DNA of 64,000 bases from Bacteroidota bacterium (GCA_018266955.1 JAFDZI010000002.1:62001-126000); one strand, 5' to 3'; shown: positions 3,917-20,190, counted from the stretch's first letter. The notes: a model not told the origin generated them from the sequence alone. Made by a program: numbers and translations.

Positions 3917-3942
3917 TTTGTTTTTTGTATTGATTCAATGTT

Positions 3943-4227: not shown

Positions 4228-4344
4228 CTATCGTCAAAAAGCAATGAAAAACGACAGGCGTGGTCAGAAATTCATAAAGAAGAGCGTTCATTGACATTTT
4301 CGGAAAAAATAAAATAAAAAATTAACAATTAAACAATTTCAATT

Positions 4345-4677
4345 ATGAAAAATCCAAACATTTCAGCCAACGAATTTTACAACGAGTTTATGGGAACAGA
4401 ATGCTACTATTCCTATATGTTCGGAATTTTGCTGACAGATGGTGTGAATACCATTGCAGAGAAAGAAGAATGCTATTGGTTTATTGACTGCATCGCTTCT
4501 TATCAATTTGAGGGAAAATTCCGTAAAGAAGAATTTCAGGTATGGAAACTTGAAAGGGTAAATGATGCCCGATTCAAACTTTCTGCGACCAACGGAAATA
4601 ACAAAGTCCTGGCTACCCAAGACATCGAATTTTCCAATTTTTTCTTTAATGAATTGACCATTTCGCTGTCTTTCTAG
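4345..4677 (+). CDS. DUF6876 family protein
   Basis: A 110-residue soluble protein containing YSYMFGILLTDGVNTIAEK, CYWFIDCIASYQ and FQVWKL, the pattern I associate with DUF6876, a small family on Bacteroidota and other mobile elements. Its function is unknown. It stands alone, preceded by copy B of the structured repeat and the motif GCGTTCATTGACAT (4284-4297), the same arrangement as upstream of ssb, so the two genes are likely under common control. The stop at 4675-4677 is followed by noncoding DNA. Confidence 0.75.
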   Translation: MKNPNISANEFYNEFMGTECYYSYMFGILLTDGVNTIAEKEECYWFIDCIASYQFEGKFRKEEFQVWKLERVNDARFKLSATNGNNKVLATQDIEFSNFFFNELTISLSF

Positions 4678-5271
4678 TCAAAACCAAAACTGCTATTCCG
4701 CAAAACTCCAAACCCCATTTTGCCCGACCCCGCAACTCCCGAACAAAAATAGCCAACTCCGGGTGTTTTTTCACCTGCCTTTGATGTAAAACCAGCGTCA
4801 AAAGCAAGGACTGTTATGTTATTTATATTTTTCATTATCAAAACTTTATTGAAATAAATAAAATCAAAACTTCGCTCAAAAAAGTGTCGAAATCTTTGTT
4901 CGCAAAAACCCGAAAACGTTCCAACTGCAAGAAATTCACTCTTCCTTTGATGCTCAAAAACAGCATCATCACAAGCACGAAACTTTTAAGAATTGTTCAT
5001 TATTTTTTCTAATTAATTCACGAATGTTTCACATTTCTACAATCCAGTTTTTTCTTCATTTGCTCAAATGCAGAAAAAACAATACCTTTAGCATTGGATA
5101 ACTCGGATATTTTGTATTTTGTTGGCAAATATAAATATACTGAATATTAGTGAGTTGCATATTTTTTCTGACGCTTATTTCGCTAGTATCCAACAGATTA
5201 GGTGACCTTTTTAGCGAAGTATTGCTTAAGTATGATTAAAATAATACTACATCTATATATAAATTTAATTA
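4678..5271. other. Noncoding region between element backbone and lanthipeptide cluster
   Basis: No supported gene. Two diverged direct repeats are visible, around 4752-4815 and 4917-4990, sharing CCAACT and CCTTTGATG followed by an AGC-containing segment. The second includes a 7-bp-stem hairpin (TGATGCT 4948-4954 / AGCATCA 4962-4968). A minus-strand frame (4674-4835, 53 residues from an ATG) is open but unconvincing. The bases from 5100 to 5271 should contain the promoter for the cluster's first gene, but no good -33/-7 pair stands out. Confidence 0.45.
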
Positions 5272-6549
5272 ATGAAGAAAATATCATACGCTTTCATCAT
5301 TTTTATTTTTGCAGCCCTTGTCCTAAACAAGATGGTTTATCAAGAAATCCCCTGGGAGGAGAAGCAAGATTTATTTTCTGAAGTTCAACGTTATAAACAT
5401 CCTATCAAGAGCATTTCTATGGAATATCTAGATGATAATGATTTGAAGGTATTCGATACTATATTAAAAGATAACAGAGTCTTAATGTTAGGGGAAAATA
5501 CTCATTCTGACGGAGCCACTTTTAAGTTGAAAAGTAGACTTATCAAGTATCTTCATGAGAATTTGAATTATAATGTAGTTCTCTATGAAGCAGCGCAATA
5601 TGATACTTGGATTATGAATGAAGAAATGAATCACCATAAAATAGGCATTCATTCAGATTCCATTGGAGGGCTCGGTCTTTTTGAGTTTTGGTGGGCTAAT
5701 AGGGAAATGAAGCCTCTTATTGAATATTATCAAAAAACTAAAATATCAGAAAACCCTATTGAGTTGGGAGGTTTTGATTTTCAATTTTCTGGAGTTACAC
5801 TTTCAGGAAGACGTGCAAAACTTCTGAAAGATTTTCTTGAAAAAAATAACATAAATATTAATAATTTTCCTATTTTCAGTAAAAACATTAAAGAGCTTGA
5901 ATATTTTGTATTTGAAAGCTACGCAAATAAGATTCTCAAAGAAAATTATAAAAATGAGCTTCTCTTGGAAATAAATAAGATTGAAAAAATAATATTAAAA
6001 TTAGAAAAAACACCAGAAAATATAATATATGCACTATACTTTAATGACTTGAAAAATAATTTTCAGAAATCATGGAATTACAAGGAAGGATCCATGTCTA
6101 GTATGCATTATAGGGATTCAATAATGGCAAAAAATCTTATTTATCAAATAGACGACATCTATAAAAATAAAAAAATCATCATATGGTGTGCCAATATTCA
6201 TACCTTTACTGCAAGGTATGATAAAGATTACCTTCCATTAGGAGCTTATATCAAAGATAAATACGGCAAAGCTTCTTATATGTTGAACTTTTCCACATAT
6301 GCTAAAAAGAGTAATAAAGGGAATCTAACTGATAAACCAGGAAAACATGCAATAGAAAATATATTTCACGAAACAAAAACTCCTTACTTTTTTATTAATC
6401 TCCGTGATATTACTGAAAGTTCTCCTTTGAAGAAGGAATTTGTATCCACTATCAATCAAGGAGTTGATCAGAGAATGTTTTGGAGTCGTTTTCTTGATGG
6501 AATTTTTTTTATAGATACAAATACACAACTAACACCAAACAAGAAGTAA
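5272..6549 (+). CDS. Membrane-anchored erythromycin esterase-like protein
   Basis: A 425-residue protein with an uncleaved N-terminal membrane segment (about residues 5-20), followed by the erythromycin esterase/EreA-like fold. The motif GENTHSDG at residues 74-81 supplies the conserved Glu and His, and VVLYEAAQYD follows near residue 100. EreA/EreB members open macrolide lactones, but most family members have unknown substrates. Its stop overlaps the start of the next ABC ATPase gene (TAATG), so it is translated with the ABC-2 transporter and heads the cluster. It could act on the lanthipeptide or protect the producer. The family is secure, the substrate unknown. Confidence 0.85.
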   Translation: MKKISYAFIIFIFAALVLNKMVYQEIPWEEKQDLFSEVQRYKHPIKSISMEYLDDNDLKVFDTILKDNRVLMLGENTHSDGATFKLKSRLIKYLHENLNYNVVLYEAAQYDTWIMNEEMNHHKIGIHSDSIGGLGLFEFWWANREMKPLIEYYQKTKISENPIELGGFDFQFSGVTLSGRRAKLLKDFLEKNNININNFPIFSKNIKELEYFVFESYANKILKENYKNELLLEINKIEKIILKLEKTPENIIYALYFNDLKNNFQKSWNYKEGSMSSMHYRDSIMAKNLIYQIDDIYKNKKIIIWCANIHTFTARYDKDYLPLGAYIKDKYGKASYMLNFSTYAKKSNKGNLTDKPGKHAIENIFHETKTPYFFINLRDITESSPLKKEFVSTINQGVDQRMFWSRFLDGIFFIDTNTQLTPNKK

Positions 6550-7451
6550 TGGAAAGTATAATAACCAAAAATCTAAGTTACTCAATAGGTTCTAAAACCA
6601 TTTTAAATAATGTAAGTTTGAATGTTCCAGAAGGTAGTATTTATGGTTACTTAGGAAGAAACGGCGCAGGAAAATCTACTACGATTAAACTCCTTTTGGG
6701 ACTTTTGGAAGAAACTGGTGATCAAATTTTAATTCAAAATAAAAGTTTGAAGCAAAACAGGACAGAAATTCTTTTTTCAACGGGAAATCTTATAGAATCC
6801 CCTTGTTTTTATACCAAACTAACAGTTTTTGAGAATTTAAAATATCTTGATATTATTTATGAAAAAGGCACCAAAAGGATTGACGAGATTCTGGAAATAG
6901 TAGGTTTAGCTAAAGAAAAAAAGAAAAAAGCCCGTGACCTTTCTATGGGGATGAAACAACGTTTAGGAATTGCTATGGCCATATTTCATGATCCAGAGTT
7001 GCTAATTTTAGACGAACCTTTAAATGGACTCGATCCTCAAGGTATATTTGAAATGAGAAGTCTATTTCAAGAACTAAATGAACAGGGGAAAACTATTTTT
7101 ATTTCGAGCCATATTCTTAGTGAATTAGAAAAAATAACAACTCACATTGGAATTATTGAAGATGGAAAAATAGCTTTTCAAGGGACTAAAAATGAACTTT
7201 TAGGAAAAGTTGAAAAGAATGTTATTTTAAAGGTAAGTAATGGTGAAAAGGCAACTTCCGCTTTACAAGGAATCTTTAACATACTTCAAACGGATTTGAA
7301 TAAAATTTCAGTAAAAATTACTAATGACAAAGAATTCAATACGCTAATAAAAACCATAATTACAAATGAGATTGATATTTATGATATAGAATCATATAAC
7401 ACAAATCTTGAGCAAATCTTTATTAAATTAATTTCTAATATCCATGACTAA
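6549..7451 (+). CDS. ABC transporter ATP-binding protein, BcrA/LanF-type
   Basis: A 300-residue ATPase with Walker A GRNGAGKSTT (near residue 40), signature LSMGMKQRL, Walker B LLILDEPLNGLD and the H-loop SSHIL. The 80-residue C-terminal extension is typical of the BcrA/NatA branch, which includes self-immunity transporters of bacteriocin producers. The permease gene overlaps it by 8 bases and the esterase-like gene overlaps it at TAATG, giving a three-gene unit. In this setting it most likely powers immunity or expulsion of the mature lanthipeptide from the inner membrane. The transport substrate is inferred from neighbours only. Confidence 0.92.
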   Translation: MESIITKNLSYSIGSKTILNNVSLNVPEGSIYGYLGRNGAGKSTTIKLLLGLLEETGDQILIQNKSLKQNRTEILFSTGNLIESPCFYTKLTVFENLKYLDIIYEKGTKRIDEILEIVGLAKEKKKKARDLSMGMKQRLGIAMAIFHDPELLILDEPLNGLDPQGIFEMRSLFQELNEQGKTIFISSHILSELEKITTHIGIIEDGKIAFQGTKNELLGKVEKNVILKVSNGEKATSALQGIFNILQTDLNKISVKITNDKEFNTLIKTIITNEIDIYDIESYNTNLEQIFIKLISNIHD

Positions 7452-8217
7452 TACTTTCTATAAAGCTTTTTCTTCAGAACAGTATAAACTTTCTAAAAAT
7501 AAAGAAATTTTCGGAATTCTGCTAATTCCCACGTTGGTTATTTTTGCTATTACATTCTATATTGCTTACGACTCAATTAGATCGGGAATTACAGACAGTA
7601 CTATCAATCCGTGGAAATTTATATTGGGAAGGTCTGTATTTCTTTTTTTATATATGCTGTATCCAATTTTAGTTTCACTTTTTGTCCATGCTTGTTGTGA
7701 TGTAGAATATCGGAATAGTAACTATAGAATTTTATTTACTGTTCCTATTTCTAAGTCTAAAATATTTATTTCTAAGGTTTTGTTTATCTTATTAATAGTT
7801 TTATTCTCTACATTGCTTTCATATGTGGCATTTTTAGGGTCAGGTTATATTTTAGGAATTACTTTTCCCAATATGGGTTTTCAGAATTATGATTACAGAG
7901 AAGTGATATTTTATATTTTCTTAAAATTCCATATTATGCTTTCAGCTATTGCCATGATCCAGCTTGCATTAAGTCTATTTTTCAAAAATTTTATTTATCC
8001 TATCGGTTTCAGCATGTTTATGCTTCTTTTTTCCGGGGTAGTGAGTGAGAAAAATTTTTCGGATTTTTTAGTATACACGGGAGGCTATAAATCTTATTTA
8101 AATTTTATGAGTGAAAATACCCTATTTGAAAGACTAGATTACTGTAATATAGTTGCTATATTTGTTTTTGCTTTGGGAAGTTTTTATATTTTTACGAAAA
8201 AGAAACAGTTTGTATGA
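7444..8217 (+). CDS. ABC-2 type permease, lantibiotic immunity-like
   Basis: A 257-residue integral membrane protein with about six hydrophobic segments (the first near residues 22-42, the last near 235-250). The N-terminus FYKAFSSEQYKLSKNKE resembles LanE/LanG and BcrB-like permeases, which begin with an amphipathic helix before TM1. It overlaps the ATPase gene by 8 bases and ends the three-gene unit. Likely partner of the ATPase at 6549-7451 in an immunity transporter. No terminator is obvious in the following 170 bases. Confidence 0.85.
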   Translation: MTNTFYKAFSSEQYKLSKNKEIFGILLIPTLVIFAITFYIAYDSIRSGITDSTINPWKFILGRSVFLFLYMLYPILVSLFVHACCDVEYRNSNYRILFTVPISKSKIFISKVLFILLIVLFSTLLSYVAFLGSGYILGITFPNMGFQNYDYREVIFYIFLKFHIMLSAIAMIQLALSLFFKNFIYPIGFSMFMLLFSGVVSEKNFSDFLVYTGGYKSYLNFMSENTLFERLDYCNIVAIFVFALGSFYIFTKKKQFV

Positions 8218-8388
8218 TTTTAATTACCTCGAATGGATTAAATTCTTGTGATTTTTTTAAATTTAGATAGTAAAAAGTCCATAAGCTAATAAGTTTCTTC
8301 GAAGAAATCCATATAGACACTACCTTAGGGATTATATTTTCAAATAATTAGAAAATTTACAGAAAAATTGAAAAAATAAAAGTAAATA

Positions 8389-9045
8389 TCATAAATAATT
8401 ATTTCTTAAATATTTATAAAATATTAAATCATTTTGTTCTTTAACCTCCTTAATTGAGCCATTATATAATAAAATAACTCTTGTAGAGATATCTAAAATT
8501 TCTCTATAATTATGATCTGTTATTATAATTCCTTTGTACATGGATTCTGATATTATGTTGCTTTTAAGCTCATTTATATGAATGGGGTCAATGTTTTTAA
8601 AAGGTTCATCAAGCAAAATATATTCAGCATTTGAGTGTACAATAAGTAATGTTTCAATAATTCTTTTTTGCCCTCCTGATAATTCGTTAGGTTTGCTATT
8701 TATAAACGGTTTTATTAAAGGATTGTTTAACAGAAATGTTGATTTTTCGTTACTACAAAAACTATGAATAATTTTTTTTATCTTGATATGAGAAGGAAGA
8801 AAAGAAAATTGTGGAAGGTATTTTATTATACCATTATTGTCAAAAACAGTTTTTATTATTTTATTGTTGACCTTAATAAATTTCTGGTCAGCAGGAAGAG
8901 AACCAAAAATTATTTTTAATAGTGTAGATTTTCCCATACCATTGGAGCCCAGTAATCCAATAATTTCTCCTTTACTACATGAAAGGAAAATATCATGTAG
9001 TATAGTTTTATCATCAAAAGTTTTAATTATGCTATCAACTTTCAT
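8389..9045 (-). CDS. ABC transporter ATP-binding protein (short, stand-alone)
   Basis: A 218-residue ATPase with Walker A LGSNGMGKSTL (near residue 35), signature ELSGGQKR, Walker B YILLDEPFKNIDP and a switch His (ITDHN). It is short, without a C-terminal extension, and the Q-loop is KYLPQF. It lies on the minus strand within the cluster, convergent with the ABC-2 unit and downstream of a small membrane protein gene (9195-9548) with which it may form a transporter. It could be a second immunity or export function. The ATPase identity is secure, the role uncertain. Confidence 0.88.
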   Translation of the reverse strand: MKVDSIIKTFDDKTILHDIFLSCSKGEIIGLLGSNGMGKSTLLKIIFGSLPADQKFIKVNNKIIKTVFDNNGIIKYLPQFSFLPSHIKIKKIIHSFCSNEKSTFLLNNPLIKPFINSKPNELSGGQKRIIETLLIVHSNAEYILLDEPFKNIDPIHINELKSNIISESMYKGIIITDHNYREILDISTRVILLYNGSIKEVKEQNDLIFYKYLRNNYL

Positions 9046-9059
9046 AGAAAATAATTCTT

Positions 9060-9193
9060 AATGCCAATTAAGGGTTGGATTTTTAATTCATTTGATTTTC
9101 AACAATTTAAAAATTTAATAAAAATAATTTCTAAATTTTCATCTTTGTAAGGTATTGGTTTTCAATAACAATTTTCAACCCTTAATTCGCATT
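9060..9193. repeat. 134-bp element with 18-bp inverted ends
   Basis: Bases 9060-9077 and 9176-9193 are inverted repeats matching at 17 of 18 positions, with the core AATTAAGGGTTG / CAACCCTTAATT perfect. The 98-bp interior is AT-rich and non-coding. The direct octamer ATTCTTAA occurs at 9054-9061 and 9191-9198, overlapping the ends. This is the layout of a MITE-like insertion, or of a long mRNA hairpin between the small membrane protein gene and the ABC ATPase gene. No larger element with these ends is visible in the window. Confidence 0.55.
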
Positions 9194-9194
9194 C

Positions 9195-9548
9195 TTAAAT
9201 GAGAAATAAGATAGTAAATATAATGTTAATTCCAAAAGTGGTTAACCATAAAAAAACTTTACTGAATCCTAAGTTATAATAAAAGTAATATTCATTAGGA
9301 TATATTAACTCATAAAAAATATAATGGAATATTATTGAAAAGAGAGAATAAGAGAGAACTGTTGACCTATAAGAAAATCCAAATATAATACTTACTAAAA
9401 TAGATATACATAAAGTTGGTATTAAAATTTTAGAATAGAAAAACAAATAATTTATAATTTTATTCAGCACAATATTAATTATTAATTGATAACAAAGTAA
9501 CAAAATATATTTGTTCAATATGAAAAAAATTATATATTTGTTAGACAA
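9195..9548 (-). CDS. Small hydrophobic membrane protein
   Basis: A 117-residue, very hydrophobic frame with three to four predicted membrane segments (around residues 5-25, 38-60, 66-85 and 98-115). It has no internal Met; the only start candidates are TTG codons (9546-9548, or codon 11), which weakens the call, although the length and hydrophobicity argue against chance. It lies divergently from the precursor peptide gene and upstream of the ABC ATPase at 8389-9045. It may be the membrane partner of that ATPase or an immunity protein. No family is recognised. Confidence 0.5.
   Translation of the reverse strand: MSNKYIIFFILNKYILLLCYQLIINIVLNKIINYLFFYSKILIPTLCISILVSIIFGFSYRSTVLSYSLFSIIFHYIFYELIYPNEYYFYYNLGFSKVFLWLTTFGINIIFTILFLI
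9511..9540 (+). promoter_or_regulatory. Promoter of the lanthipeptide precursor gene
   Basis: The -33 element TTG (9511-9513) and -7 element TATATTTG (9533-9540) are separated by exactly 19 bases, the Bacteroidota consensus arrangement. Transcription would begin near 9546, giving a leader of about 24 bases with no Shine-Dalgarno. The promoter overlaps the 5' end of the divergent membrane protein frame, so the two transcripts compete or are co-regulated. Confidence 0.72.
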
Positions 9549-9569
9549 AACAATTTAAATTTCAAAATC

Positions 9570-9836
9570 ATGAAAAAGAAAAAAATTTTAAAGTTTTCAA
9601 AAGAAACAGTAACAAAATTAGACAAAAATTCTAAAAAGCTTATTAACGGTGGAGCCGCTGGTATGGAACTAGCAATAGATGCAGGTTTTTCAGCTGGTTG
9701 TACTGATGGATGTGGTATAACAAAAACTCATTGGAATTGCACAGAAGCTACGTGTACTGCTGATTGTGGTTCTGCTATTAATTGCGCTCCAACATCGAAG
9801 TCTTTAGACGGTCTTACTTGTACTTTTGTTGGGTAA
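9570..9836 (+). CDS. Class I lanthipeptide precursor peptide (LanA)
   Basis: An 88-residue peptide. Residues 1-28 form a Lys-rich leader ending LINGG, the GG-type site expected to be cut by the C39 exporter downstream. The 60-residue core (29-88) holds seven Cys (44, 48, 57, 62, 66, 72, 84) and thirteen Ser/Thr, enough for several (methyl)lanthionine rings. The first part AAGMELAIDAGFSAG lacks Cys and may be linear. It lies directly upstream of LanC and the split LanB, with its own promoter and followed by a hairpin terminator. Resembles GG-leader natural product precursors of Bacteroidota. The ring pattern cannot be predicted from sequence. Confidence 0.9.
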   Translation: MKKKKILKFSKETVTKLDKNSKKLINGGAAGMELAIDAGFSAGCTDGCGITKTHWNCTEATCTADCGSAINCAPTSKSLDGLTCTFVG

Positions 9837-9862
9837 TTAAAGTACTTTTACATTAAGAATAG

Positions 9863-9886
9863 GAGGCTGTTTTTCAGCCTCTTTTT
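9863..9886 (+). terminator. Terminator/attenuator between precursor and LanC genes
   Basis: GAGGCTG (9863-9869), a five-T loop and CAGCCTC (9875-9881) form a perfect 7-bp stem followed by five T. It lies 26 bases after the precursor stop and 20 before LanC. A leaky terminator here would give far more precursor than enzyme transcript, the usual ratio in lanthipeptide operons. Confidence 0.8.
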
Positions 9887-9905
9887 AATTGGATATTTCT
9901 TGACT

Positions 9906-11099
9906 ATGAGCTTAATCATTACAAAAGAGAAACAAAAAGAATTAGAATATTTATTATACTTCATAGCTGAAGGAATTATAAATAAAAAAGATAACCCAAA
10001 TATAGGTTTACTATCTGGTGCAATGGGAGAGACCCTATTTTTATATGAATATTCTCAAATAAATAAGAATTATGAAAAATATGTCACTAAAAAAATAGAT
10101 TATATATTTGAGTCTATAGAAAACGGAAATGTCTTTCATACGTATTGTAATGGATTACCTGGAATTTGTTTGGCTATTGATTATATTCAGTCTAAAAGCC
10201 ATTTTGATTACAAGCGTTTTGATTTTGTAGATAATCAAATTGATGAATGGCTTATTGAACAATTTAATATTTGTATTAATGAAGGAAATTATGATTTCTT
10301 ACATGGAGCAATTGGAATAGGATATTATTTTTTGGAGAAATTCAAAAGTGGTCATCTCGAATCAAAAAAAACCTTAAATGTTTTATTAAAATTCATTAAT
10401 AATTCTGCAATTAATGAAAATGATTTTGTAAAGTGGAAAACTCATAATAAGGTTGTGAACATTTCTTTATCTCATGGTATGACAAGCATTGTGCTCTTTT
10501 TATTAGATCTATACAAATTAGATGTGAAATTTGATTATAATATTGAACAAATTATCAAAGGAGCAATAAATTTTATTTTAGCACAGGAAATTGATTGGAA
10601 GATGTATGGATCTTACTATCCTTTTACGTCTATCGAACAGCAAAAAGATAAAATTCATGGAAGTAGGCTATCTTGGTGCTATGGAGATCTTGGCATTGCA
10701 ATAATGCTAAGTAAGGCTTCTAAAATTTTTAATAAAACTATATGGGAAGAGAAATCTAAAGAAATATTTGAATATTCTACTACAAGAAAAAGCATTAGTG
10801 AGACTACAATAGTAGATGCAGGAATATGCCATGGAAGTTCTGGTGTTGCATTAATCTTTTATAATGAGTTTTTAAAAACAAATAATGCACATTATGCAGT
10901 AGCTGCTCAATTTTGGCTTAATAAAACACTAACCTTTTATAAAGAAGATTCAGAAAATTTTTCAAAAGTTTGTTACAACACTATTACAGGAAATTATGAA
11001 CCCAACCCTAGTATTCTCGATGGTACTTCTGGAGTAGGATTAGCCTTAATATCATTTATTAATAATAAACTTGATTGGTCAAAATTTTTAACAATATGA
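9906..11099 (+). CDS. Lanthionine synthetase C family protein (LanC cyclase)
   Basis: A 397-residue LanC-like cyclase. The zinc ligands are visible: Cys258 in SWCYGDLG and Cys308-His309 in ICHGSSG. GG-type helical repeats of the alpha/alpha barrel recur (FLHGAIGIG, SHGMTS, LDGTSGVGLAL). The enzyme catalyses Michael addition of Cys thiols to dehydroalanine/dehydrobutyrine in the precursor core. The ATG at 9906 is preferred over a TTG at 9900. Its stop overlaps the start of LanB (ATGA), so the two are translationally coupled. Length is close to the family's ~400 residues. All metal-binding residues are present, so it is probably active. Confidence 0.93.
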   Translation: MSLIITKEKQKELEYLLYFIAEGIINKKDNPNIGLLSGAMGETLFLYEYSQINKNYEKYVTKKIDYIFESIENGNVFHTYCNGLPGICLAIDYIQSKSHFDYKRFDFVDNQIDEWLIEQFNICINEGNYDFLHGAIGIGYYFLEKFKSGHLESKKTLNVLLKFINNSAINENDFVKWKTHNKVVNISLSHGMTSIVLFLLDLYKLDVKFDYNIEQIIKGAINFILAQEIDWKMYGSYYPFTSIEQQKDKIHGSRLSWCYGDLGIAIMLSKASKIFNKTIWEEKSKEIFEYSTTRKSISETTIVDAGICHGSSGVALIFYNEFLKTNNAHYAVAAQFWLNKTLTFYKEDSENFSKVCYNTITGNYEPNPSILDGTSGVGLALISFINNKLDWSKFLTI

Positions 11100-13306
11100 A
11101 AAATATGAAAAAAAAATATTCAGTATCTGATAATTTTATAATAAGATACCCTTTTTTTTCTTTTAAATACAACGATGGATGGGATATTAATGACATACAC
11201 GAGTGTGACAAGTTTCATTCCCCCTTATTTATAGCTTCCCCTACACTTTTAGATGAGTTTAAAAAGCTTAAAGAAGGAAAAATAAAAGATGTAAAATCAA
11301 TTGATAAAATTAATATTTCTTTATATAAATACTGGAGTAGAATAAAATCTAGACCTACTCCTTTTGGCTTATTTTCAGGTGTTTCTTTAGGAAAAATCCA
11401 TAATCATACTGATTTAGTTTTTAGTGAAAAATCCATAGCTAAAATTAGAATGGATATGAAATATCTATTTGATATTTTTACTTATCTTAAAGATATTCCT
11501 GAAATAAAAAATCAAGTAATTTTCTATCCCAATGACAGTATTTACTCTTTTAACAGTAAATATCGCTTTATAGAGAAAAAATATTCTAATGATTCTATTA
11601 AGTACGAAATTTCTGCTACTGACAAAAGCTCTTCTTTAAAAAAACTTTTATTATTGGCAAAAACAGGAATTAATTATAAAGGAATTGTGGATTTTCTTGT
11701 TTCAGAGGGATATAATGAAGATGAAAATTTGCATGAATATATTAATAATATCATTGATTCTCAAATTTTAATAAGTGAACTTGAACCAACATTAATAGGT
11801 GATGATTATTTGGAAAGAATTTTAAAAATTATAGAAGAGAGAAATATAAGTCACGATATTTTCAATAAACTTAAAGATTTAAAATTTGAATTAAAAATAC
11901 TGAATGAAAAAAATACTGTTATAGAGATTAGCGACATATTAAGAATAGAAAAAATTGTTAAAAACATCAAAATTCCTTTTGACAATAAATATCTTATACA
12001 GATTGATTCTACAAAGCAATTTCAATCTTCATATCTCAATAAAGATTATACTAATGAATTATTAGATGCTATTACTTTTTTATCAAAAATAGGGTCAATA
12101 AAAAATGAAAATCAGGACTTAGAAGATTTCAAATCCATTTACCAAGAAAAATATGAAAGTGAAGAAATTTCTTTACTACAAGCACTAGATCCTGAAATTG
12201 GAATAGGATATCCTGTTAGCAAAAATGTAGGAAAAGAATATAGTAATTCATTAATCAAAAATTTTCTTCTTGTAAATAATAGTGTGAAAAAAGGACAAAA
12301 AAGATGGGATCTAATACAGGATATTTTAATAGAAAAGATAATTACGGCTAAAGAAAACAAAGATAATGAAATTGTAATTTCAAAAGAGGACTTTCCTTTC
12401 TTTGACATGGTTAGATCTGATATGTCTCCTGTAATTTACTCAATTTTTGAAGCAATAAATGATACTCAAAATAACGCATTAATTTATTTAAAATTTGTAG
12501 GTAATGGTTCTGGTGCTAAATTAATGAGCAGATTTTCACGTCTTGACAAGGGGATTGAAGAGTATGTAAAAAAGTTAATGAAAATAGAGCAGGAGAAAAG
12601 TAATATTGAATTTGTAGAATTGTCCCATTTATCTGAATCTCCAAGAGTCGGAAATATTTCTATAAGACCAAGGCTTACTAATTACGAAATAACTTGTTTG
12701 TCAAATTCAAATTTAGATCAAAAATTTATTATTCCTATATCTGATATTCTTTTATCAATAAAAAGAAATAAAATTATTCTAAGATCGAAAAAACTAAAAA
12801 AAGAAATTTTCCCTACTCTTACAACTGCACATAACTTTAGAGATTCTTCTTTTCCAGTATATAGATTTTTATGTGATTTACAATATCAAAACCTTCAATC
12901 AAATGGATTAATGCTAAATATTAACCTCAATCTTAATTATATTCCTAGAATAAGATATAAAAACACAATTTTACGATTAGCAAGTTGGGAAGTAACAAAA
13001 AGCGAGCTTACAGATATTTTTGAAAAAAAACTATATGATGCTTCAAAAATGGAAAACATCAGAAAATGGATTGAAAAAAGAAATATTCCGCAATATATTT
13101 TGGTTTCAGAAGATGATAATGAAATGTTCATTGATTTCTACAATATAAATAGTATCAATGTATTTTTGTCACTACTAAAGAAAAAAAATAAACTTAAAAT
13201 AGTTGAATTTTTATATAATGATAAAACTGCTATTTTAAGAGATAGTTTTGGAAATCCTTATAGAAATCAAATAATTATACCTCTATTTAGAAATGATGAA
13301 GAATAG
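11096..13306 (+). CDS. Lantibiotic dehydratase, glutamylation domain (LanB N-terminal part)
   Basis: About 736 residues. The diagnostic RPTPFGLFSGVSLG stands near residue 90, and the later SPRVGNISIRPRLTNYEI and FRDSSFPVYRFLCDLQ match the Lant_dehydr_N region. This part uses glutamyl-tRNA to glutamylate Ser/Thr of the precursor. It lacks the C-terminal elimination domain, which is supplied by the next gene, so the LanB is split as in thiopeptide-type and some Bacteroidota systems. The start is the ATG at 11096, overlapping the LanC stop, or a second ATG at 11105. The gene is extremely AT-rich. It overlaps the following gene by 14 bases. Confidence 0.92.
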   Translation: MKNMKKKYSVSDNFIIRYPFFSFKYNDGWDINDIHECDKFHSPLFIASPTLLDEFKKLKEGKIKDVKSIDKINISLYKYWSRIKSRPTPFGLFSGVSLGKIHNHTDLVFSEKSIAKIRMDMKYLFDIFTYLKDIPEIKNQVIFYPNDSIYSFNSKYRFIEKKYSNDSIKYEISATDKSSSLKKLLLLAKTGINYKGIVDFLVSEGYNEDENLHEYINNIIDSQILISELEPTLIGDDYLERILKIIEERNISHDIFNKLKDLKFELKILNEKNTVIEISDILRIEKIVKNIKIPFDNKYLIQIDSTKQFQSSYLNKDYTNELLDAITFLSKIGSIKNENQDLEDFKSIYQEKYESEEISLLQALDPEIGIGYPVSKNVGKEYSNSLIKNFLLVNNSVKKGQKRWDLIQDILIEKIITAKENKDNEIVISKEDFPFFDMVRSDMSPVIYSIFEAINDTQNNALIYLKFVGNGSGAKLMSRFSRLDKGIEEYVKKLMKIEQEKSNIEFVELSHLSESPRVGNISIRPRLTNYEITCLSNSNLDQKFIIPISDILLSIKRNKIILRSKKLKKEIFPTLTTAHNFRDSSFPVYRFLCDLQYQNLQSNGLMLNINLNLNYIPRIRYKNTILRLASWEVTKSELTDIFEKKLYDASKMENIRKWIEKRNIPQYILVSEDDNEMFIDFYNINSINVFLSLLKKKNKLKIVEFLYNDKTAILRDSFGNPYRNQIIIPLFRNDEE

Positions 13307-14186
13307 AAAATATGCACCAGGATCAGAATGGCTTTATTTTAAAATTTACACAGGCTATAAAACAGCAGATAAGCTTTTGTTGAATAAAATTTATCCTTTA
13401 ATTATTGATTTAAAGAGGAAAAAATATATTGATCAATTCTTTTTTATAAGATATTCAGATCCTCATTATCATTTAAGAGTTAGATTGCATATCTCAGAGC
13501 ACAAAAATTTAGGTGAGGTCATTGTTTTATTTAATAAAAATTTATATAAATTATTGAATAATAATACTATATGGAAAATTCAAATTGACACATATAATCA
13601 AGAGATTGAGAGGTACAATGTTCACTTAATCGAACATATAGAAAATTTTTTTCATATTGATAGTGATTACATTATTAAAATTTTGAAAGCAATAAATATT
13701 AAATTTAATAATGATGAAGATGTAAAATGGATTATTGGTTTAAAACTTATAGATAGTTCACTTTCTTTATTTTATTCAGGGGATGAGGACAAAATGAATG
13801 TTATAAGTGCAATGAGTGAATCCTTTAAAAATGAGTTTGGGTTTAATATGTATAATTCTAAACAATTTAATAGTAAATATCGAGAGAATAAGCATACAAT
13901 AGAAGCTGTAATGTCTGGTGTAAATATAATTGATGATTATAATTATACAAATTTATACAATCTTTGTAAAAAAAGGCATAAAGACTTAATAGCATCTACA
14001 TCATTAATTAAACAGACACAATTAAAAAAACAACTATCACAGGATATAATAATTGATCTTATACATATGACAATTAATAGATTAATTCCTGCTGAAAATA
14101 GATTACACGAATTAATATTATATGACTTTGTAAAAAGATATTATTTAAGTGTAATAGCAAAGAAAAGAAACAAAAAATATAAATAA
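13293..14186 (+). CDS. Lantibiotic dehydratase, elimination domain (SpaB C-terminal-like)
   Basis: A 297-residue protein beginning MMKNRKYAPGSEWLYFKIY and continuing FFIRYSDPHYHLRVRLHI, the hallmark of the SpaB_C / thiopeptide-type bacteriocin biosynthesis domain. It eliminates glutamate from the glutamylated Ser/Thr to give dehydroamino acids. In nisin-type LanB it is fused to the glutamylation domain; here the two overlap by 14 bases and presumably form a complex. Together they total about 1,030 residues, the usual LanB length. The stop is followed by 189 bases before the exporter gene. Confidence 0.9.
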   Translation: MMKNRKYAPGSEWLYFKIYTGYKTADKLLLNKIYPLIIDLKRKKYIDQFFFIRYSDPHYHLRVRLHISEHKNLGEVIVLFNKNLYKLLNNNTIWKIQIDTYNQEIERYNVHLIEHIENFFHIDSDYIIKILKAINIKFNNDEDVKWIIGLKLIDSSLSLFYSGDEDKMNVISAMSESFKNEFGFNMYNSKQFNSKYRENKHTIEAVMSGVNIIDDYNYTNLYNLCKKRHKDLIASTSLIKQTQLKKQLSQDIIIDLIHMTINRLIPAENRLHELILYDFVKRYYLSVIAKKRNKKYK

Positions 14187-14284
14187 CATATATTTAAAAT
14201 TATTTTATTTTTAGATTTTTAACAGGTCTCATTTTTATTAGTTATAGAAAAAATTGTTAGTTAAAAATAACAAGTACAAGAGAA

Positions 14285-14338
14285 ATGTTAAAACCCATTA
14301 AAGTCAGAAGCCCTTTAGACGGTCTTGGTATATTATAA
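14285..14338 (+). CDS. Candidate 17-residue peptide, possible precursor fragment
   Basis: A short frame encodes MLKPIKVRSPLDGLGIL between the elimination-domain gene and the exporter gene. It shares 14 consecutive bases (CTTTAGACGGTCTT, 14313-14326) with the 3' end of the precursor gene (9802-9815), in the same reading frame, giving LDGL in both. It lacks Cys, so it is not itself a lanthipeptide core. It may be a remnant of a duplicated precursor, a signalling peptide or chance. Confidence 0.25.
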   Translation: MLKPIKVRSPLDGLGIL

Positions 14339-14375
14339 TAAATGAATTAATAAAGAATATATTTTAATTTTTAAA

Positions 14376-16580
14376 ATGAATTTAAGACATTTTCCCTTTT
14401 ATAAACAACCCGATGCTAAGGATTGTGGTCCAACTTGTTTGAGAATCATAAGCAAATACTATGGGAAAAATATATCTTTACAACAAATTCGTAGTCTTTC
14501 TGAAACTACTAGAGAAGGTAGCTCATTACTTGGTCTAAGTAATGCAGCAGAAAATTTAGGCTTTTCGACGTTAGGTGTTAAATTAGACTTTAATACTCTA
14601 AAAGAAGTCCCTTTTCCATGTGTTGTACATTGGAATAAACAACATTTTGTAGTTGTTTATGATATAATAGAAAAAAAAACTGATTGCAAAATAAAAATAA
14701 GTGATCCAAGTTATGGACTCATCACGTATGATGACGAAGAATTTATTAAACAATGGATAGGTAATAATGCCGATGAAAATACAGAAGAAGGAATAGCATT
14801 AATTTTAGAAACTACACCAGCTTTTTATCAAAAGGAATATGATGATGAAGAAAGTAAAGCGAGTCTCAAATTTCTTTCTAAATATTTATTCAAATACAAA
14901 TCACTAATCCTTCAGTTAGCTGTTGGTTTATTGGCGGGAAGTTTATTATCTCTTATTCTTCCATTTCTTACTCAAAGCATTGTAGATGTTGGCATACAAA
15001 ATCAAGATTTAAACTTTATTTATTTGGTATTAATTGCACAAATAATGCTTTTTTTGGGAAGAATGGGAATAGAAATTATTCGAAGTTGGATTTTGCTTCA
15101 CCTTTCTTCTAGAATTAATATTTCTATTATTTCTGATTTCTTTATTAAATTAATGAAACTTCCAATCAGTTTCTTTGATACCAGAATGACGGGTGATATT
15201 ATGCAGAGAATTAATGATCATCATAGAATTGAACAGCTTCTTACTAATTCTTCGCTAAATACTTTATTTTCTTTGGTGAATTTTATTATTTTCAGCATTG
15301 TTTTGTTGTTTTATGATTATAGGTTATTTATAGTTTATTTGGTTGGAGCAATTCTATATATAACATGGATTACATTTTTTCTTAATAAAAGAAAAGAATT
15401 AGACTATAAAAGATTTTCTCAAGTTTCCCAAGAACAAAGCAAAGTAATTGAGCTTATTAACGGAATGCAGGAAATTAAAATGCATAATGCCGAAAAACAA
15501 AAACGTTGGGGTTGGGAATTTCTGCAAGTAAAACTATTTAAATTAAGAATAAAATCACTTTCATTAGAACAATGGCAATCGGTTGGGGGAAACTTCATTA
15601 ACCAAATTAAGGATATTTTTATGAGTTTTCTTTCTGCAAAATTGGTATTAGATGGGAATCTGACTTTAGGGATGATGCTTTCAGTCCAATATATCATTGG
15701 ACAATTAAATAGTCCTTTAATGCAGTTAATTGATTTTATAAAGCAATACCAAGATGCATCTATCTCTTTGGAAAGACTTGCAGAAATACACGATAAAGAA
15801 AATGAAGAAAATCATGAAGAACAATATATTAATGATATTCCTCAAAAAGATATAGAGATAAAGAATGTTTCTTTTAGATATATCGGTACTGAACAATTTG
15901 TTTTTGAAGATTTAAATCTTATGATTCCTAATCAGAAAACTACAGCAATTGTAGGAGCCAGTGGAAGTGGCAAAACTACCCTACTAAAATTACTAATGAA
16001 ATTCTACGAACCTAATACTGGAGAAATAAAAATAGGAAGCACCAATCTTAAAAATATTTCTCCAAGATTCTGGAGAGAGCATTGTGGTGTTGTTATGCAA
16101 GATGGCTATATTTTTAATGATACCATTGCAGAGAATATTGCAGTTGGAGAAGATTATATTGACAAAAACAAATTAAGAAAATCAGTAGAAATTGCCAACA
16201 TAAAAGATTTTATTGAAGAATTACCTTTAAGTTATAACACTAAAATAGGTAATGAAGGAGTCGGAATAAGTGGTGGACAAAAACAAAGACTTTTCATTGC
16301 TCGAGCAGTATACAAATCTCCAGAATATATCTTTTTTGACGAAGCAACATCTGCTTTAGATGCCAATAATGAAAGAATCATTATGGAAAATTTAGAGCAA
16401 TTCTTTAAAGGGAAAACAGCTATAGTGATTGCTCACAGACTATCAACGGTAAAACACGCAGATAAAATTATTGTATTGGATAAAGGAAAAGTAGTAGAAG
16501 AAGGAACACATAAAGAGTTGGTAACATTAAAAGGAGAATATTATAGACTTGTTAAAAATCAATTGGAACTTGGAAACTAA
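14376..16580 (+). CDS. Peptidase-containing ABC exporter (C39, LanT-type)
   Basis: 734 residues in three parts. The N-terminal C39 peptidase carries Cys17 in KDCGPTC, His90 in KQHFVVV and Asp110 in ISDPSYG. A six-TM ABC export domain follows (about 160-440). The nucleotide-binding domain has Walker A GASGSGKTTL, signature ISGGQKQRL and Walker B IFFDEATSALD. The enzyme cleaves GG leaders and exports the modified core from the cytosol. It is the likely processing and export unit for the precursor at 9570-9836. The adaptor gene follows with an overlapping start, and the channel gene completes a type I-like route across both membranes. Confidence 0.95.
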   Translation: MNLRHFPFYKQPDAKDCGPTCLRIISKYYGKNISLQQIRSLSETTREGSSLLGLSNAAENLGFSTLGVKLDFNTLKEVPFPCVVHWNKQHFVVVYDIIEKKTDCKIKISDPSYGLITYDDEEFIKQWIGNNADENTEEGIALILETTPAFYQKEYDDEESKASLKFLSKYLFKYKSLILQLAVGLLAGSLLSLILPFLTQSIVDVGIQNQDLNFIYLVLIAQIMLFLGRMGIEIIRSWILLHLSSRINISIISDFFIKLMKLPISFFDTRMTGDIMQRINDHHRIEQLLTNSSLNTLFSLVNFIIFSIVLLFYDYRLFIVYLVGAILYITWITFFLNKRKELDYKRFSQVSQEQSKVIELINGMQEIKMHNAEKQKRWGWEFLQVKLFKLRIKSLSLEQWQSVGGNFINQIKDIFMSFLSAKLVLDGNLTLGMMLSVQYIIGQLNSPLMQLIDFIKQYQDASISLERLAEIHDKENEENHEEQYINDIPQKDIEIKNVSFRYIGTEQFVFEDLNLMIPNQKTTAIVGASGSGKTTLLKLLMKFYEPNTGEIKIGSTNLKNISPRFWREHCGVVMQDGYIFNDTIAENIAVGEDYIDKNKLRKSVEIANIKDFIEELPLSYNTKIGNEGVGISGGQKQRLFIARAVYKSPEYIFFDEATSALDANNERIIMENLEQFFKGKTAIVIAHRLSTVKHADKIIVLDKGKVVEEGTHKELVTLKGEYYRLVKNQLELGN

Positions 16581-17874
16581 AAAAGACATATTAGATAATA
16601 TAGAACTTCGTTCAGAGAGTGTTCAGGATATACTTACACAACCGCCACATTGGATGATTCGGTGGGGAAATACCGTCATTTTTATTATTTTACTAATGAT
16701 ATTGCTAATGAGCTATATCATCAAATATCCGGAATTTGTTCCAGCAAGTGTGATCATCACTTCCCAAAATCCACCCGAAAAATTAGAAGCCAGAATCAAT
16801 TCCAAAATTGAGAAAATTTTTATCAAAGACCATCAGATAGTAAACAAAGGGCAAGTAATGATGGTACTGCAATCCACAGGAGATTATCGTAGTATTTTGG
16901 AATTAAAGAATATAATGGATTCCCTTTCACCTAATCACTTACAATCTTTTCCTATTCATAAAACATCGGCTTTTAAGCTTGGAGAGATACAAGGAGAGTA
17001 TAATAATTTTGCTAAAGCTCTTCAGGATGAAAGATTATTTACAAGATTACAGCCTTACGCTCCGGAAAACCTTGCTGCAGACCAGAGCCTTTCGGAATAT
17101 AAAGGAAGAGTTGCCAATCTTCAACAGCAGAAAAATCTGGAAATTGCGAAATACGAATTAACCAAAAAGAATTTTCAGCGTTCGCAGGATTTGTTTAATC
17201 AAGGTGTAATAGCAGCAATGGAATTGGAAAATGAAAAGATAAAATTCCTTCAGGCAGAACAAAGTCTTAAAAACATCAATATTTCTCTTTCACAAATGCA
17301 GGAAGCCATTTCCGGTCTGCATAAAACAAAAAGAGGAGCTACTATCAATACTGAAAAAGACAAGATTAATTATTCATCCCAAACACTTCAACTCTACGAA
17401 CAATTAAGGAAATCTTTACGACAATGGGAACAGAGTTACCTCATTATTTCATCAACAAACGGAATCGTGAGCTTCCAACAATTCTGGGGAGAAAATCAGT
17501 TTGTAAAATCCGGCGATATGGTAATGTCAGTTTTGCCCGAAGATAAAGAATTTTTAGTTGGAAGAATGCAGATTCCATCAGCCAATTCGGGGAAAGTACA
17601 AACCGGGCAAAAAGTTTTGATAAAATTAGATAATTATCGCTTTCAGGAATACGGAATTATTGAGGGAAAAGTTCAGAATATTTCACTTACACCTGATGAA
17701 AATGGAAATTATTACGTTGATGTAATTCTTCCAAAAGGATTGAAAACATCTTATAATAAAACACTTCTGTTTGATAAGGAACTAAAAGGTAATGGCGAAA
17801 TTGTAACGGAGGATTTGCGACTTATTGAGAGAATCTTTTTTCAGATTAGGAAATTATTGGGGTATCAATCTTAA
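16570..17874 (+). CDS. HlyD family secretion adaptor
   Basis: About 434 residues. One N-terminal membrane segment (WGNTVIFIILLMILLMSYII) is followed by a lipoyl/barrel-sandwich half (SKIEKIFIKDHQIVNKGQ), a long coiled-coil hairpin (about 150-270) and a C-terminal beta domain. It links the inner-membrane exporter with the TolC-type channel. No ATG exists near the start; the TTG at 16570, overlapping the exporter stop, gives an N-terminus (LETKKDILDNIELRSESVQD) expected for this group, and a TTG at 16549 is the alternative. Confidence 0.9.
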   Translation: METKKDILDNIELRSESVQDILTQPPHWMIRWGNTVIFIILLMILLMSYIIKYPEFVPASVIITSQNPPEKLEARINSKIEKIFIKDHQIVNKGQVMMVLQSTGDYRSILELKNIMDSLSPNHLQSFPIHKTSAFKLGEIQGEYNNFAKALQDERLFTRLQPYAPENLAADQSLSEYKGRVANLQQQKNLEIAKYELTKKNFQRSQDLFNQGVIAAMELENEKIKFLQAEQSLKNINISLSQMQEAISGLHKTKRGATINTEKDKINYSSQTLQLYEQLRKSLRQWEQSYLIISSTNGIVSFQQFWGENQFVKSGDMVMSVLPEDKEFLVGRMQIPSANSGKVQTGQKVLIKLDNYRFQEYGIIEGKVQNISLTPDENGNYYVDVILPKGLKTSYNKTLLFDKELKGNGEIVTEDLRLIERIFFQIRKLLGYQS

Positions 17875-17902
17875 AATATCCGAGTACGATTGTTTTAGAG
17901 AT

Positions 17903-19225
17903 ATGAAAAAATATTTACCGTGCATAATGCTTCTTATTCCGATATTATCGTTTTCACAGGAAAAATGGTCATTACAGCATTGTGTCGATTATGCGGTGGA
18001 ACACAATCTTCAAATTTCGGCGGAAAAAATTAATCTCGAAAGCCAAAGAAATAATGTCCTTATTGCTAAAAAAGACAAACTTCCTAATATTTCCGGCTCC
18101 ATCAATAATAGTGTGAATTTTGGACAAAATGTAATTTTGGGAACGTTACAGAGAAATGATAATCTTTCAAACAATACCAACCTTTCCGCAAGTATCCAAC
18201 TTTATGGAAACGGAAAGCTGAAAAAATCCATTGAAAAAGCACAGTATGATGTGGCAACCGCAGACTTCAACAGGCAAAACATTGAGAATAATATTAGTCT
18301 TCAAATTATTCAAGGTTATCTTCAAGTGTTATTAAACAAAGAAGTTTATAAAATAGACCTTAGCAGTTATGAAAATGCGGTTAAATTATACCAAAAATCC
18401 AAATTGACAACCAAAGCAGGATTAACCCCATTTTCAGTTGAAAGTGAGGCGTTGGCAGAAGTTTCCCGGAAGAAACAGGCAATGCTGAATGCTGAAAATG
18501 AAGTGAAAAGAGCATTGTTTGATTTATCGGTTTTGTTACAGTTGGAAGATGAAGAAAATTTTGATATTGAAGACGTTGCCGTTTCAGAGGTACAACCTCA
18601 AATCCCGGAATCAACAGCGTTTTACATAGAGGCAGCATTTGAAAATCAACCGATTATAAAATCCGCCGAAACCCAGATAAAATCTGCGAAAATGCAGACA
18701 GAAGTGATAAAATCGAATCTGTATCCTACTTTATCCTGCAACGTTGGTTTGGGAACTTATTACTTCAATTATTTTAATGATACTTATACCAAGAGTTCTT
18801 CATTTCTCAAGCAATATTATGAGAATTTTGGTCAGCAAATCAGCGTGAGTGCTATTATTCCGATTTTCAATAAAGGGATTACCCGTTTGCAAATAGAGCA
18901 ATCCAAAATACAGGAAACTCTTGCGGAGAATAATTTATCCCGGCAAAAATTAGCATTGAAGCAAAGCGTCAAAAAAGCCGTTTTCGATTCCAATGCCAAT
19001 TATCAAAACTATGTAGCAGCATTGGAAGTGGATAAAAATTCAAAACTTTCATTAAATCTTGCAGAAAAAAGTTATATGGCAGGAAAGATTTCGATCTACG
19101 ATTTGAATAATGCGAGAAACAACGCAATAACGGCAGAAAGCCAGCTTCAACAAGCTAAATACAATTACATCTTTAGTGTAAAATTGCTGGATTTCTATAC
19201 AGGTAAGTCTTTTAAAGGTAACTAA
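17903..19225 (+). CDS. TolC family outer membrane channel
   Basis: About 440 residues with a signal peptide (MKKYLPCIMLLIPILSFSQ) followed by two outer-membrane efflux protein repeats rich in Gln/Asn coiled coil, for example AQYDVATADFNRQNIENNIS and a second repeat ending YSVKLLDFYTG-like (IFSVKLLDFYTG). It provides the outer-membrane duct for the C39 exporter and HlyD adaptor. The ATG at 17903 is chosen because it begins the signal peptide; upstream codons are out of character. It ends only 9 bases from the stop of the convergent replication gene at 19,235. Confidence 0.92.
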   Translation: MKKYLPCIMLLIPILSFSQEKWSLQHCVDYAVEHNLQISAEKINLESQRNNVLIAKKDKLPNISGSINNSVNFGQNVILGTLQRNDNLSNNTNLSASIQLYGNGKLKKSIEKAQYDVATADFNRQNIENNISLQIIQGYLQVLLNKEVYKIDLSSYENAVKLYQKSKLTTKAGLTPFSVESEALAEVSRKKQAMLNAENEVKRALFDLSVLLQLEDEENFDIEDVAVSEVQPQIPESTAFYIEAAFENQPIIKSAETQIKSAKMQTEVIKSNLYPTLSCNVGLGTYYFNYFNDTYTKSSSFLKQYYENFGQQISVSAIIPIFNKGITRLQIEQSKIQETLAENNLSRQKLALKQSVKKAVFDSNANYQNYVAALEVDKNSKLSLNLAEKSYMAGKISIYDLNNARNNAITAESQLQQAKYNYIFSVKLLDFYTGKSFKGN

Positions 19226-19234
19226 AAATTTTTC

Positions 19235-19939
19235 CTACTCGTCAAAAATAGACCTCGGTCGTTTTATAGTTTGCAAAACAATTTTCTTTTCAGAGGCAGA
19301 ATTTTGGCACTCCAATTCTGAATGGATAAAAGGTATTACGCTTTTTATGGAAGATTTCCAGTTCGTTATCGGTTTGTTATAGCCGTTTTTCCATTCGTTT
19401 TCGAGCCAAATTTTATACTTTTCTTCAATAAGATTCTCCAATTCGGGAATGTAATTTTTCAATGTTTTCGCATGCAGCATAAATTCTTCTAAAGACGGAA
19501 TATTGCCGGAATTCGGAATTTGTGTTGATGGAGAGTTTTTCGGAGGATTGTCCGTTGCCAAATTTTCATTTAGAGGATTTTTATTTTTCTGTAAAGGTTT
19601 TTTGGCGGTTTTCTTTTTTTTCGGAATTGATTTTTTAGGATTTTCAGTAACGGATAACACAGTCGAATATTCCCGAAGAATTTTGTAGTGTCCTGGAAGT
19701 CCGTTTTGTGATTGGTATTGTATCATTCCCAGATTGCTGAGTTTTTGACGTAAGGTAATAATAGTCGGTCTTGTGATTTTCAGCCGTTTGCAAATATCGT
19801 TGTCCGAAAGTTTGAAATCGTTTTCTTCGTTTTTTGTCCATATTTCCAGCAAAAAAAGATATAGGGAAACGGCAATCGCTCCCAATGGCTGTTTTTCGTT
19901 GTGCTCCCAAAAACGACTGATTATTTCCGAATAATTCAT
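19235..19939 (-). CDS. Winged-helix replication-initiator-like protein
   Basis: A 234-residue protein. The N-terminal ~90 residues look like a winged helix (FKLSDNDICKRLKITRPTIITLRQKLSNLGMI, given here in overlapping recognition), a Lys/Pro/Asn-rich linker covers about 100-140, and a C-terminal helical domain includes KIWLENEWKNGYNKPITNWK, reminiscent of DnaD-type domains. DnaD-like proteins help open origins or load helicase. It ends the replication operon, and its start overlaps the DUF3853 stop by 4 bases. The assignment is by fold impression, with moderate confidence; a transcription regulator is an alternative. Confidence 0.6.
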   Translation of the reverse strand: MNYSEIISRFWEHNEKQPLGAIAVSLYLFLLEIWTKNEENDFKLSDNDICKRLKITRPTIITLRQKLSNLGMIQYQSQNGLPGHYKILREYSTVLSVTENPKKSIPKKKKTAKKPLQKNKNPLNENLATDNPPKNSPSTQIPNSGNIPSLEEFMLHAKTLKNYIPELENLIEEKYKIWLENEWKNGYNKPITNWKSSIKSVIPFIHSELECQNSASEKKIVLQTIKRPRSIFDE

Positions 19940-20190
19940 TTTTTATACAAAGCCATAAGTTGCATTGCTTTTTCTTTATCAATAATAATATGATGCCCGT
20001 TCTGAATAATGGCATCATCCAAAATTCCACTGGATTTTAATTTCGCAGCTTTCGAGCGGGAGCAACCAAGCACTTTGGCTAAACCGATAAGTCCATATTC
20101 ATACTTTTTTTCTAAAGCATTAAGTTCTTGTAATTCCAGAAATTCCTCAACAGTCAGTTCAAGCAGCGGTTTTTTCGGATTGATATTCAT
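19936..20190 (-). CDS. DUF3853 family protein
   Basis: An 84-residue protein starting MNINPKKPLLELTVEEFLEL and containing YGLIGLAKVLGCSRSKAAKL, the HTH typical of DUF3853, followed by GHHIIIDKEKAMQL. These small DNA-binding proteins accompany replication or excision genes on Bacteroidota mobile elements. The frame is open to 20,289, but that extension overlaps the primase gene and is not family-like, so the ATG at 20,190 is preferred. Its stop overlaps the start of the downstream winged-helix gene. Likely role: recognition of an element site or control of replication. Confidence 0.8.
   Translation of the reverse strand: MNINPKKPLLELTVEEFLELQELNALEKKYEYGLIGLAKVLGCSRSKAAKLKSSGILDDAIIQNGHHIIIDKEKAMQLMALYKK

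What the first reader, a model, noticed from the sequence alone, without database searches (positions are those of the whole stretch)
5272..19225. Complete class I lanthipeptide cluster with split LanB on a mobile element
Precursor, LanC (all zinc ligands present), glutamylation and elimination enzymes as separate overlapping genes, GG-cleaving exporter, adaptor and channel are all present and intact. The 60-residue core with seven Cys is long for a class I lanthipeptide and its sequence is not one I recognise, so the product may be new. Few Bacteroidota lanthipeptides (for example pinensins) are characterised.
Basis: partly seen in the sequence, partly recalled or inferred. Interest (0 to 1): 0.72.

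Follow-up and report, generated by a model that had tools for sequence, protein, structure and literature searches.

The report
Mobile lanthipeptide cluster with recurring core
A roughly 55-kb mobile element in a flavobacterium carries genes predicted to make and export a new, multiply ringed lanthipeptide; the type of machinery is known, but the peptide's repeating Cys/Ser/Thr core recurs across very different clusters and the set was pieced together from separate modules.

Summary
A class I lanthipeptide cluster lies at 9570-19225: precursor, LanC with all zinc ligands, split LanB (glutamylation and elimination genes overlapping), C39 exporter, adaptor and channel. Three corrections. (1) Not everything is intact: between LanBC and the exporter lies a decayed remnant of a DoxX-like gene that sister clusters keep. 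(2) The Ere-like/ABC-transporter operon at 5272-8217 is a free-standing Chryseobacterium operon, so its link to the peptide is unproven; a divergent ABC gene pair (8389-9467) is the conserved neighbour. (3) The cluster is composite: 14.6 kb of cargo in a ~55-kb ICE, in a slot nearly empty in a related ICE. Another related ICE pairs the same exporter and right arm with a different LanB/LanC. The core is not an isolated oddity: its motif GC[TS]DGC-x(6-10)-NC[TS]xAxC[TS]xxC recurs in eight other genomes, with split LanBs only ~34% identical and fused LanBs ~26% identical. Six of seven Cys have a Ser/Thr 3-5 residues upstream, predicting consecutive small rings. Split LanB, GG leader and C39 are already described for Bacteroidota; the product is unreported in the papers searched. 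New member of a known kind.

The parts
9570..9836 (+). lanA precursor, 88 aa; leader 1-28 ends in GG, core residues 29-88 (9654-9833) with 7 Cys
   Evidence: (NF038153 class I lanthipeptide leader, 20 bits against cut-off 22)
9510..9540 (+). Bacteroidota-type promoter match TTTG-N19-TAnnTTTG upstream of lanA
   Evidence: 3 matches in the window, 0.95 expected by chance, so weak alone; a matching site at the same place in ISL-6 (alignment)
9861..9883 (+). terminator-like stem-loop between lanA and lanC (possible attenuator giving excess precursor)
   Evidence: best of 9 found, 4.0 expected
9906..11099 (+). lanC cyclase, 397 aa, zinc motifs WCYG and CHG
11096..13306 (+). lanB N-terminal (glutamylation) enzyme; RxxxRxTPFGLF motif
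   Evidence: 79% identical to Chryseobacterium sp. ISL-6
13293..14186 (+). lanB C-terminal (glutamate elimination) enzyme; FIRYSDPHYHLRVR and HMTINR motifs
14187..14337 (+). decayed 5' remnant of a DoxX-like gene, truncated before the exporter
   Evidence: DNA alignment score 148 against a shuffled maximum of 78; intact homologue in ISL-6 L036:10081-10698 (DoxX just below cut-off)
14376..16580 (+). C39 peptidase-ABC exporter (cleaves after GG and exports)
16549..17874 (+). HlyD-type periplasmic adaptor
17825..19225 (+). TolC/OEP outer-membrane channel (likely start near 17903)
   Evidence: 96% identical in the related ICE of G218
8389..9045 (-). divergent ABC transporter ATPase, conserved next to lanA in ISL-6 (80%); candidate self-protection
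9195..9467 (-). small membrane protein (about 91 aa from GTG), conserved in ISL-6 (72%); probable partner of the ATPase
5272..8217 (+). Ere-like protein plus two-gene ABC exporter: self-standing operon, possible immunity or resistance cargo; membership in the lan cluster not shown
1..23041 (.). right part of an ICE of about 55 kb that continues upstream of the window; right end near the 18-bp repeat at 23024-23041

Best explanation
The locus makes and exports a class I lanthipeptide. Steps inferred from family knowledge: LanB-N adds glutamate from Glu-tRNA to core Ser/Thr; the separate LanB-C eliminates it to give dehydroamino acids; LanC uses its zinc site to add Cys thiols to them; the C39 domain of the exporter cuts after Gly28, and the peptide leaves through the ABC exporter, HlyD adaptor and TolC channel. 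The core shows Ser/Thr 3-5 residues before nearly every Cys, so a chain of small, non-overlapping rings is the likeliest topology: S41-C44, T45-C48, T53-C57, T58-C62, T63-C66 and S68-C72, with C84 uncertain. The cluster is cargo of an ICE and was joined from two modules: a lanACBB module, shared with Chryseobacterium sp. ISL-6, and a generic exporter module shared with a related ICE. The junction lies just before the exporter, in the remains of a DoxX-like gene. The product is probably an antibacterial used against related or neighbouring bacteria (inferred only). The divergent ABC pair is the best candidate for self-protection.
For: Pfam matches for LanC, LanB-N, LanB-C, C39, HlyD and OEP. 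Catalytic motifs kept in the relatives checked, except one elimination motif in the fused LanB of L085. LanA, LanC and both LanB genes conserved in the same order in ISL-6 (L036) at about 74-79% identity. Motif GC[TS]DGC...NC[TS]xAxC[TS]xxC shared by nine precursors beside LanB/LanC genes from 79% down to about 26% identical. Ring spacing exceeds shuffles: 6 of 7 Cys against a mean of 2.5, P 0.003. Single LanC and single LanB-N in the genome, so these enzymes most likely serve this precursor. ICE genes, and occupied against adjacent site in a congener. Exporter plus right arm shared with the ICE of G218 from position 14372, which pairs them with a different fused LanB and LanC; nearly empty cargo slot in G110.
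Against: No expression or mass data. The NCBIfam leader model is just under its cut-off (20 against 22 bits). A DoxX-like partner gene is decayed, so the product may lack a modification or the cluster may be starting to degenerate. Small-ring pairing is inferred from spacing and not tested. Antibacterial activity is assumed by analogy.
Confidence: 0.85

Rival explanations
1. The enzymes are complete but the cluster is silent or degenerating: the exporter junction and loss of the DoxX-like gene broke an essential step, and a 134-bp inverted-repeat element disturbed the divergent ABC operon.
For: DoxX-like remnant; insert with 18-bp inverted repeats at 9060-9193, absent at that place in ISL-6.
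Against: All core enzymes and the precursor are open and keep their active-site motifs. G144 carries the same core type with no DoxX-like gene found in its 20-kb region. The LanA core stays close to that of ISL-6, with all 7 Cys conserved.
Confidence: 0.2
2. The split LanB/LanB-C pair is part of a non-lanthionine pathway (thiopeptide-like), with the stand-alone PF14028 protein acting as a cycloaddition enzyme. NCBIfam names it thiopeptide-type (TIGR03891).
For: TIGR03891 match at 190 bits, above its cut-off.
Against: A LanC gene is present and no azole-forming genes lie in the cluster. There is no other LanB-N in the genome, and the LanB-N found lacks its own elimination domain, so the PF14028 protein is needed for elimination. 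Relatives with the same core have a fused LanB plus LanC.
Confidence: 0.04
3. The Ere-like protein and ABC pair at 5272-8217 are the dedicated immunity (LanFE-like) genes of this cluster.
For: The ATPase resembles the lantibiotic-protection ATPase model TIGR03740 (238 bits, under its cut-off of 309.75), and the permease weakly resembles MutE/MutG. It is directly upstream.
Against: Close homologues of the Ere-like gene (61-71%) occur in about 35 relatives; in the four loci examined the same three-gene operon has no lan gene beside it. ISL-6 and the other core-family loci lack it.
Confidence: 0.3

Closest known systems
Class I lanthipeptide clusters of Bacteroidota with split LanB, LxLxKx5L/GG leader and C39 protease (Walker et al. 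2020, PMC7268733; includes pinensin)
   Same: Split glutamylation and elimination enzymes, GG leader (here LxFxKx5L), C39 exporter, LanC.
   Different: Core sequence and its ring spacing not reported in the papers searched. Direct comparison with the pinensin core was not made (sequence not at hand).
Lan cluster of Chryseobacterium sp. ISL-6 (NZ_JAGGPT010000004.1; L032/L036)
   Same: lanA, lanC, both lanB genes and the divergent ABC pair, 72-80% identical; all seven core Cys conserved; also beside mobility genes.
   Different: Intact DoxX-like gene follows LanBC. No exporter beside it; the chromosome has an 87% identical C39 exporter elsewhere. Core 7 residues shorter near its N terminus. No Ere/ABC operon.
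Chryseobacterium-group clusters G137, G172, G106, G094, G097 (L084-L088)
   Same: Core motif GLFTAGCSDGC...NCSKANCTADC, LanC, DoxX-like gene.
   Different: Fused LanB of about 1000 aa, only about 26% identical to LanB-N here; 6-Cys core ending at GNC.
ChmA cluster of Chryseobacterium sp. OV715 (PMC9993889)
   Same: Class I lanthipeptide from the same family of bacteria, shown to be dehydrated and cyclised in E. coli when native GluRS/tRNA is supplied.
   Different: Seven dehydrations and three rings reported; its sequence was not compared here.

Membership tests
class I lanthipeptide biosynthesis | LanB glutamylation domain with conserved catalytic motif | tested here: met
   PF04738 E 1e-105; RxxxRxTPFGLF aligned to the NisB motif
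class I lanthipeptide biosynthesis | LanB elimination domain | tested here: met
   PF14028 E 2.1e-62; FIRYSDPHYHLRVR and HMTINR motifs, aligned to MibB and 9g04
class I lanthipeptide biosynthesis | LanC cyclase with zinc ligands (Cys, Cys-His) | tested here: met
   PF05147; WCYG and CHG aligned to solved LanC 8byk
class I lanthipeptide biosynthesis | precursor with Cys/Ser/Thr core and class I leader features | tested here: met
   LxFxKx5L and GG visible in sequence; NF038153 leader model matched at 20 bits, just under its 22-bit cut-off
class I lanthipeptide biosynthesis | (methyl)lanthionine in the product | not testable with these tools
   needs mass spectrometry
split-LanB, GG/C39 Bacteroidota subgroup | glutamylation and elimination on separate polypeptides; C39 exporter in cluster | tested here: met
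   description in PMC7268733
pinensin family (Walker family I_17) | core sequence similarity to pinensin | not tested
   pinensin sequence not available in the tools used
LanFEG lantibiotic immunity transporter | scores above NCBIfam cut-offs TIGR03740/TIGR03732/TIGR03733 | tested here: not met
   238 against 309.75; 24.6 against 145.2; 23.4 against 117.2
integrative and conjugative element | integrase, relaxase, coupling protein, conjugation ATPase | tested here: met
   PF00589, PF03432, PF10412/PF02534, PF19044, PF12508
integrative and conjugative element | discrete insertion with unoccupied site in a relative | tested here: met
   HD gene and dnaX adjacent in G001, about 55.7 kb apart here; imperfect 18-bp direct repeats near both ends

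The most novel reading that the evidence does not exclude
The GC[TS]DGC...NC[TS]xAxC[TS]xxC peptides are a distinct lanthipeptide core type that has been passed between distantly related LanB/LanC backbones (split and fused), normally together with a DoxX-like membrane protein. On ICEs of this kind, a conserved double-glycine exporter next to the element's right arm acts as a docking platform, and homologous recombination in it lets different bacteriocin modules be swapped.
Probability: 0.35. Interest if true: 0.65.

Novelty: new member of a known kind. Interest (0 to 1): 0.45.

Why it matters
It gives a concrete, testable core family for Bacteroidota lanthipeptides, of which very few have been isolated. 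It predicts a specific ring pattern, and it shows an example of how such clusters are assembled from swappable modules on a conjugative element. The recurrent DoxX-like gene is a lead for an unassigned step or a protection function.

Tried and rejected
Treating the Ere/ABC operon as part of the cluster: not supported, since it stands alone in four loci and is absent from the core-family relatives. Plasmid search for the precursor: only chance-level hits. Searching papers for the core motif as text: nothing relevant. Papers on DoxX with lanthipeptides, or on lanthipeptides on Bacteroidota ICEs: nothing direct. Wider search for the core in sampled genomes of the order: only family members (sampled, so not proof of absence). 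A known mobile-element family for the 134-bp inverted-repeat insert: only this one copy in the genome. A tRNA as ICE target: none found in the window. Structure prediction was not used, because sequence families already identified the enzymes.

Full report
What is there. Window 9570-19225 holds, all on the + strand: a precursor (lanA, 88 aa); lanC; the glutamylation half of LanB; the elimination half of LanB; a C39 peptidase-ABC exporter; a HlyD-type adaptor; and an outer-membrane channel. The two LanB genes overlap by 14 nt. LanC has the WCYG and CHG zinc motifs, LanB-N the RxxxRxTPFGLF motif, and LanB-C the FIRYSDPHYHLRVR and HMTINR motifs; these are kept in the relatives checked, except that the HMTINR pattern was not found in the fused LanB of L085. 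Only one LanC and one LanB-N exist in the genome. I place the LanC start at ATG 9906, because ISL-6 starts at the same residue, and the LanB-N start at ATG 11096, which overlaps the LanC stop (reading). A terminator-like stem lies between lanA and lanC, and a Bacteroidota-type promoter match lies before lanA (weak by itself, but a matching site is present in ISL-6).

The core. The leader (28 aa) ends in GG and has LxFxKx5L, close to the LxLxKx5L/GG type that Walker et al. reported for Bacteroidota class I precursors together with C39 proteases and split LanBs (PMC7268733). The 60-residue core has 7 Cys and 13 Ser/Thr. The closest relative, Chryseobacterium sp. ISL-6, keeps all seven Cys. Searching 320 family genomes with a precursor profile, and reading the neighbourhoods, gave a core family of nine: this one, ISL-6, G144, G079 and five further genomes of the Chryseobacterium-type genus g5 (G137, G172, G106, G094, G097). 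All share GC[TS]DGC-x(6-10)-NC[TS]xAxC[TS]xxC. The enzymes beside these cores are as little as 34% identical (G144, split LanB) or about 26% (the five, fused LanB). Conversely, LanBs that are 63-66% identical to this one (G128, G052, G140; also G178, where LanB is interrupted) go with quite different, shorter cores in multi-precursor arrays. So core type and LanB relatedness do not track each other; that is an observation on a dozen loci, and exchange of cores is only one reading of it. In this core, six of seven Cys have a Ser/Thr 3-5 residues before them with no overlap between pairs; shuffled cores average 2.5 and reach six in 0.3% of cases. This predicts consecutive small rings.

Not all intact. 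In ISL-6 a DoxX-like membrane protein gene follows LanBC at once; it also occurs in G079 and in the five fused-LanB loci, and was not found in the 20-kb region of G144. In the window the 150 bp after LanBC align with the first ~200 nt of that gene (score 148, best of 200 shuffles 78), with frameshifts, and the match ends before the exporter. The exporter gene begins just beyond this remnant.

Exporter and neighbours. The C39 exporter is a common family gene: 216 of 316 sampled genomes hit at E <= 1e-100, the best 84-89% identical, many without lan genes nearby. ISL-6 has its copy elsewhere on the chromosome. The Ere-like/ABC/ABC operon at 5272-8217 is a conserved three-gene unit, found alone in the four other genomes examined; it scores below the lantibiotic-immunity cut-offs. 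The divergent ATPase and small membrane protein (8389-9467) are conserved beside lanA in ISL-6 (80% and 72%), which makes them better candidates for self-protection.

The mobile element. Upstream of the window the same contig has a tyrosine integrase, relaxase, ParA-like protein, TraG, TraM and a VirD4-type coupling protein. The element lies between an HD-domain gene and dnaX, which are adjacent in the congener G001. Imperfect 18-bp direct repeats CGCTCTAAATC(A/G)TACCCC lie near both ends, giving a size of about 55 kb. Against a related ICE in G110, the window carries 14.6 kb (4663-19242) where G110 has 0.44 kb. Against another in G218, homology runs unbroken from 14372, just before the exporter start, through the right arm; but G218 pairs the exporter with a fused LanB and another LanC. 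Identity between the two rises from about 80-87% to 97-99% near 17600, inside hlyD. The simplest reading is recombination within the exporter genes; this is inference from two elements, and the shared junction at 14372 is the firmer fact.

How it works. The chemistry is inferred from the families: Glu-tRNA-dependent glutamylation, elimination by the separate LanB-C, zinc-dependent cyclisation by LanC, cleavage after GG and export. A Chryseobacterium class I cluster has been shown to work in this way in E. coli when native GluRS/tRNA is supplied (PMC9993889). Antibacterial action is assumed.

Verdict. A real class I lanthipeptide cluster and a new member of a known kind, with a mildly surprising history: a recurring core on unlike enzymes, a lost partner gene, and assembly from modules on an ICE. 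No paper found here describes this core, but only open-access papers could be searched and the pinensin core was not compared.

Noticed in passing
9060-9193: 134-bp insert bounded by 18-bp inverted repeats AATGC(C/G)AATTAAGGGTTG between the small membrane gene and its ATPase; the two genes are nearly adjacent (about 12 bp apart) in ISL-6. Only copy in the genome.
   Followed up: partly
2371-3003: PRTRC_E gene joined to the tail of another gene: about 2.8 kb present in the related ICE of G110 is missing at about 2846-2861, so the PRTRC operon is broken here.
   Followed up: partly
L084-L088, L036, L040: DoxX-like membrane protein recurs next to lanthipeptide genes with this core type; its role is unknown.
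   Followed up: partly
L041 (G178) 9094-11300: LanB-N of a close relative is interrupted within an otherwise ordered cluster with many precursors: a likely recent frameshift or decay.
   Followed up: no
4663-19242: Variable cargo slot of this ICE type, between the DUF6876 gene and the gene at 19235: related ICEs hold different short genes or almost nothing there.
   Followed up: partly
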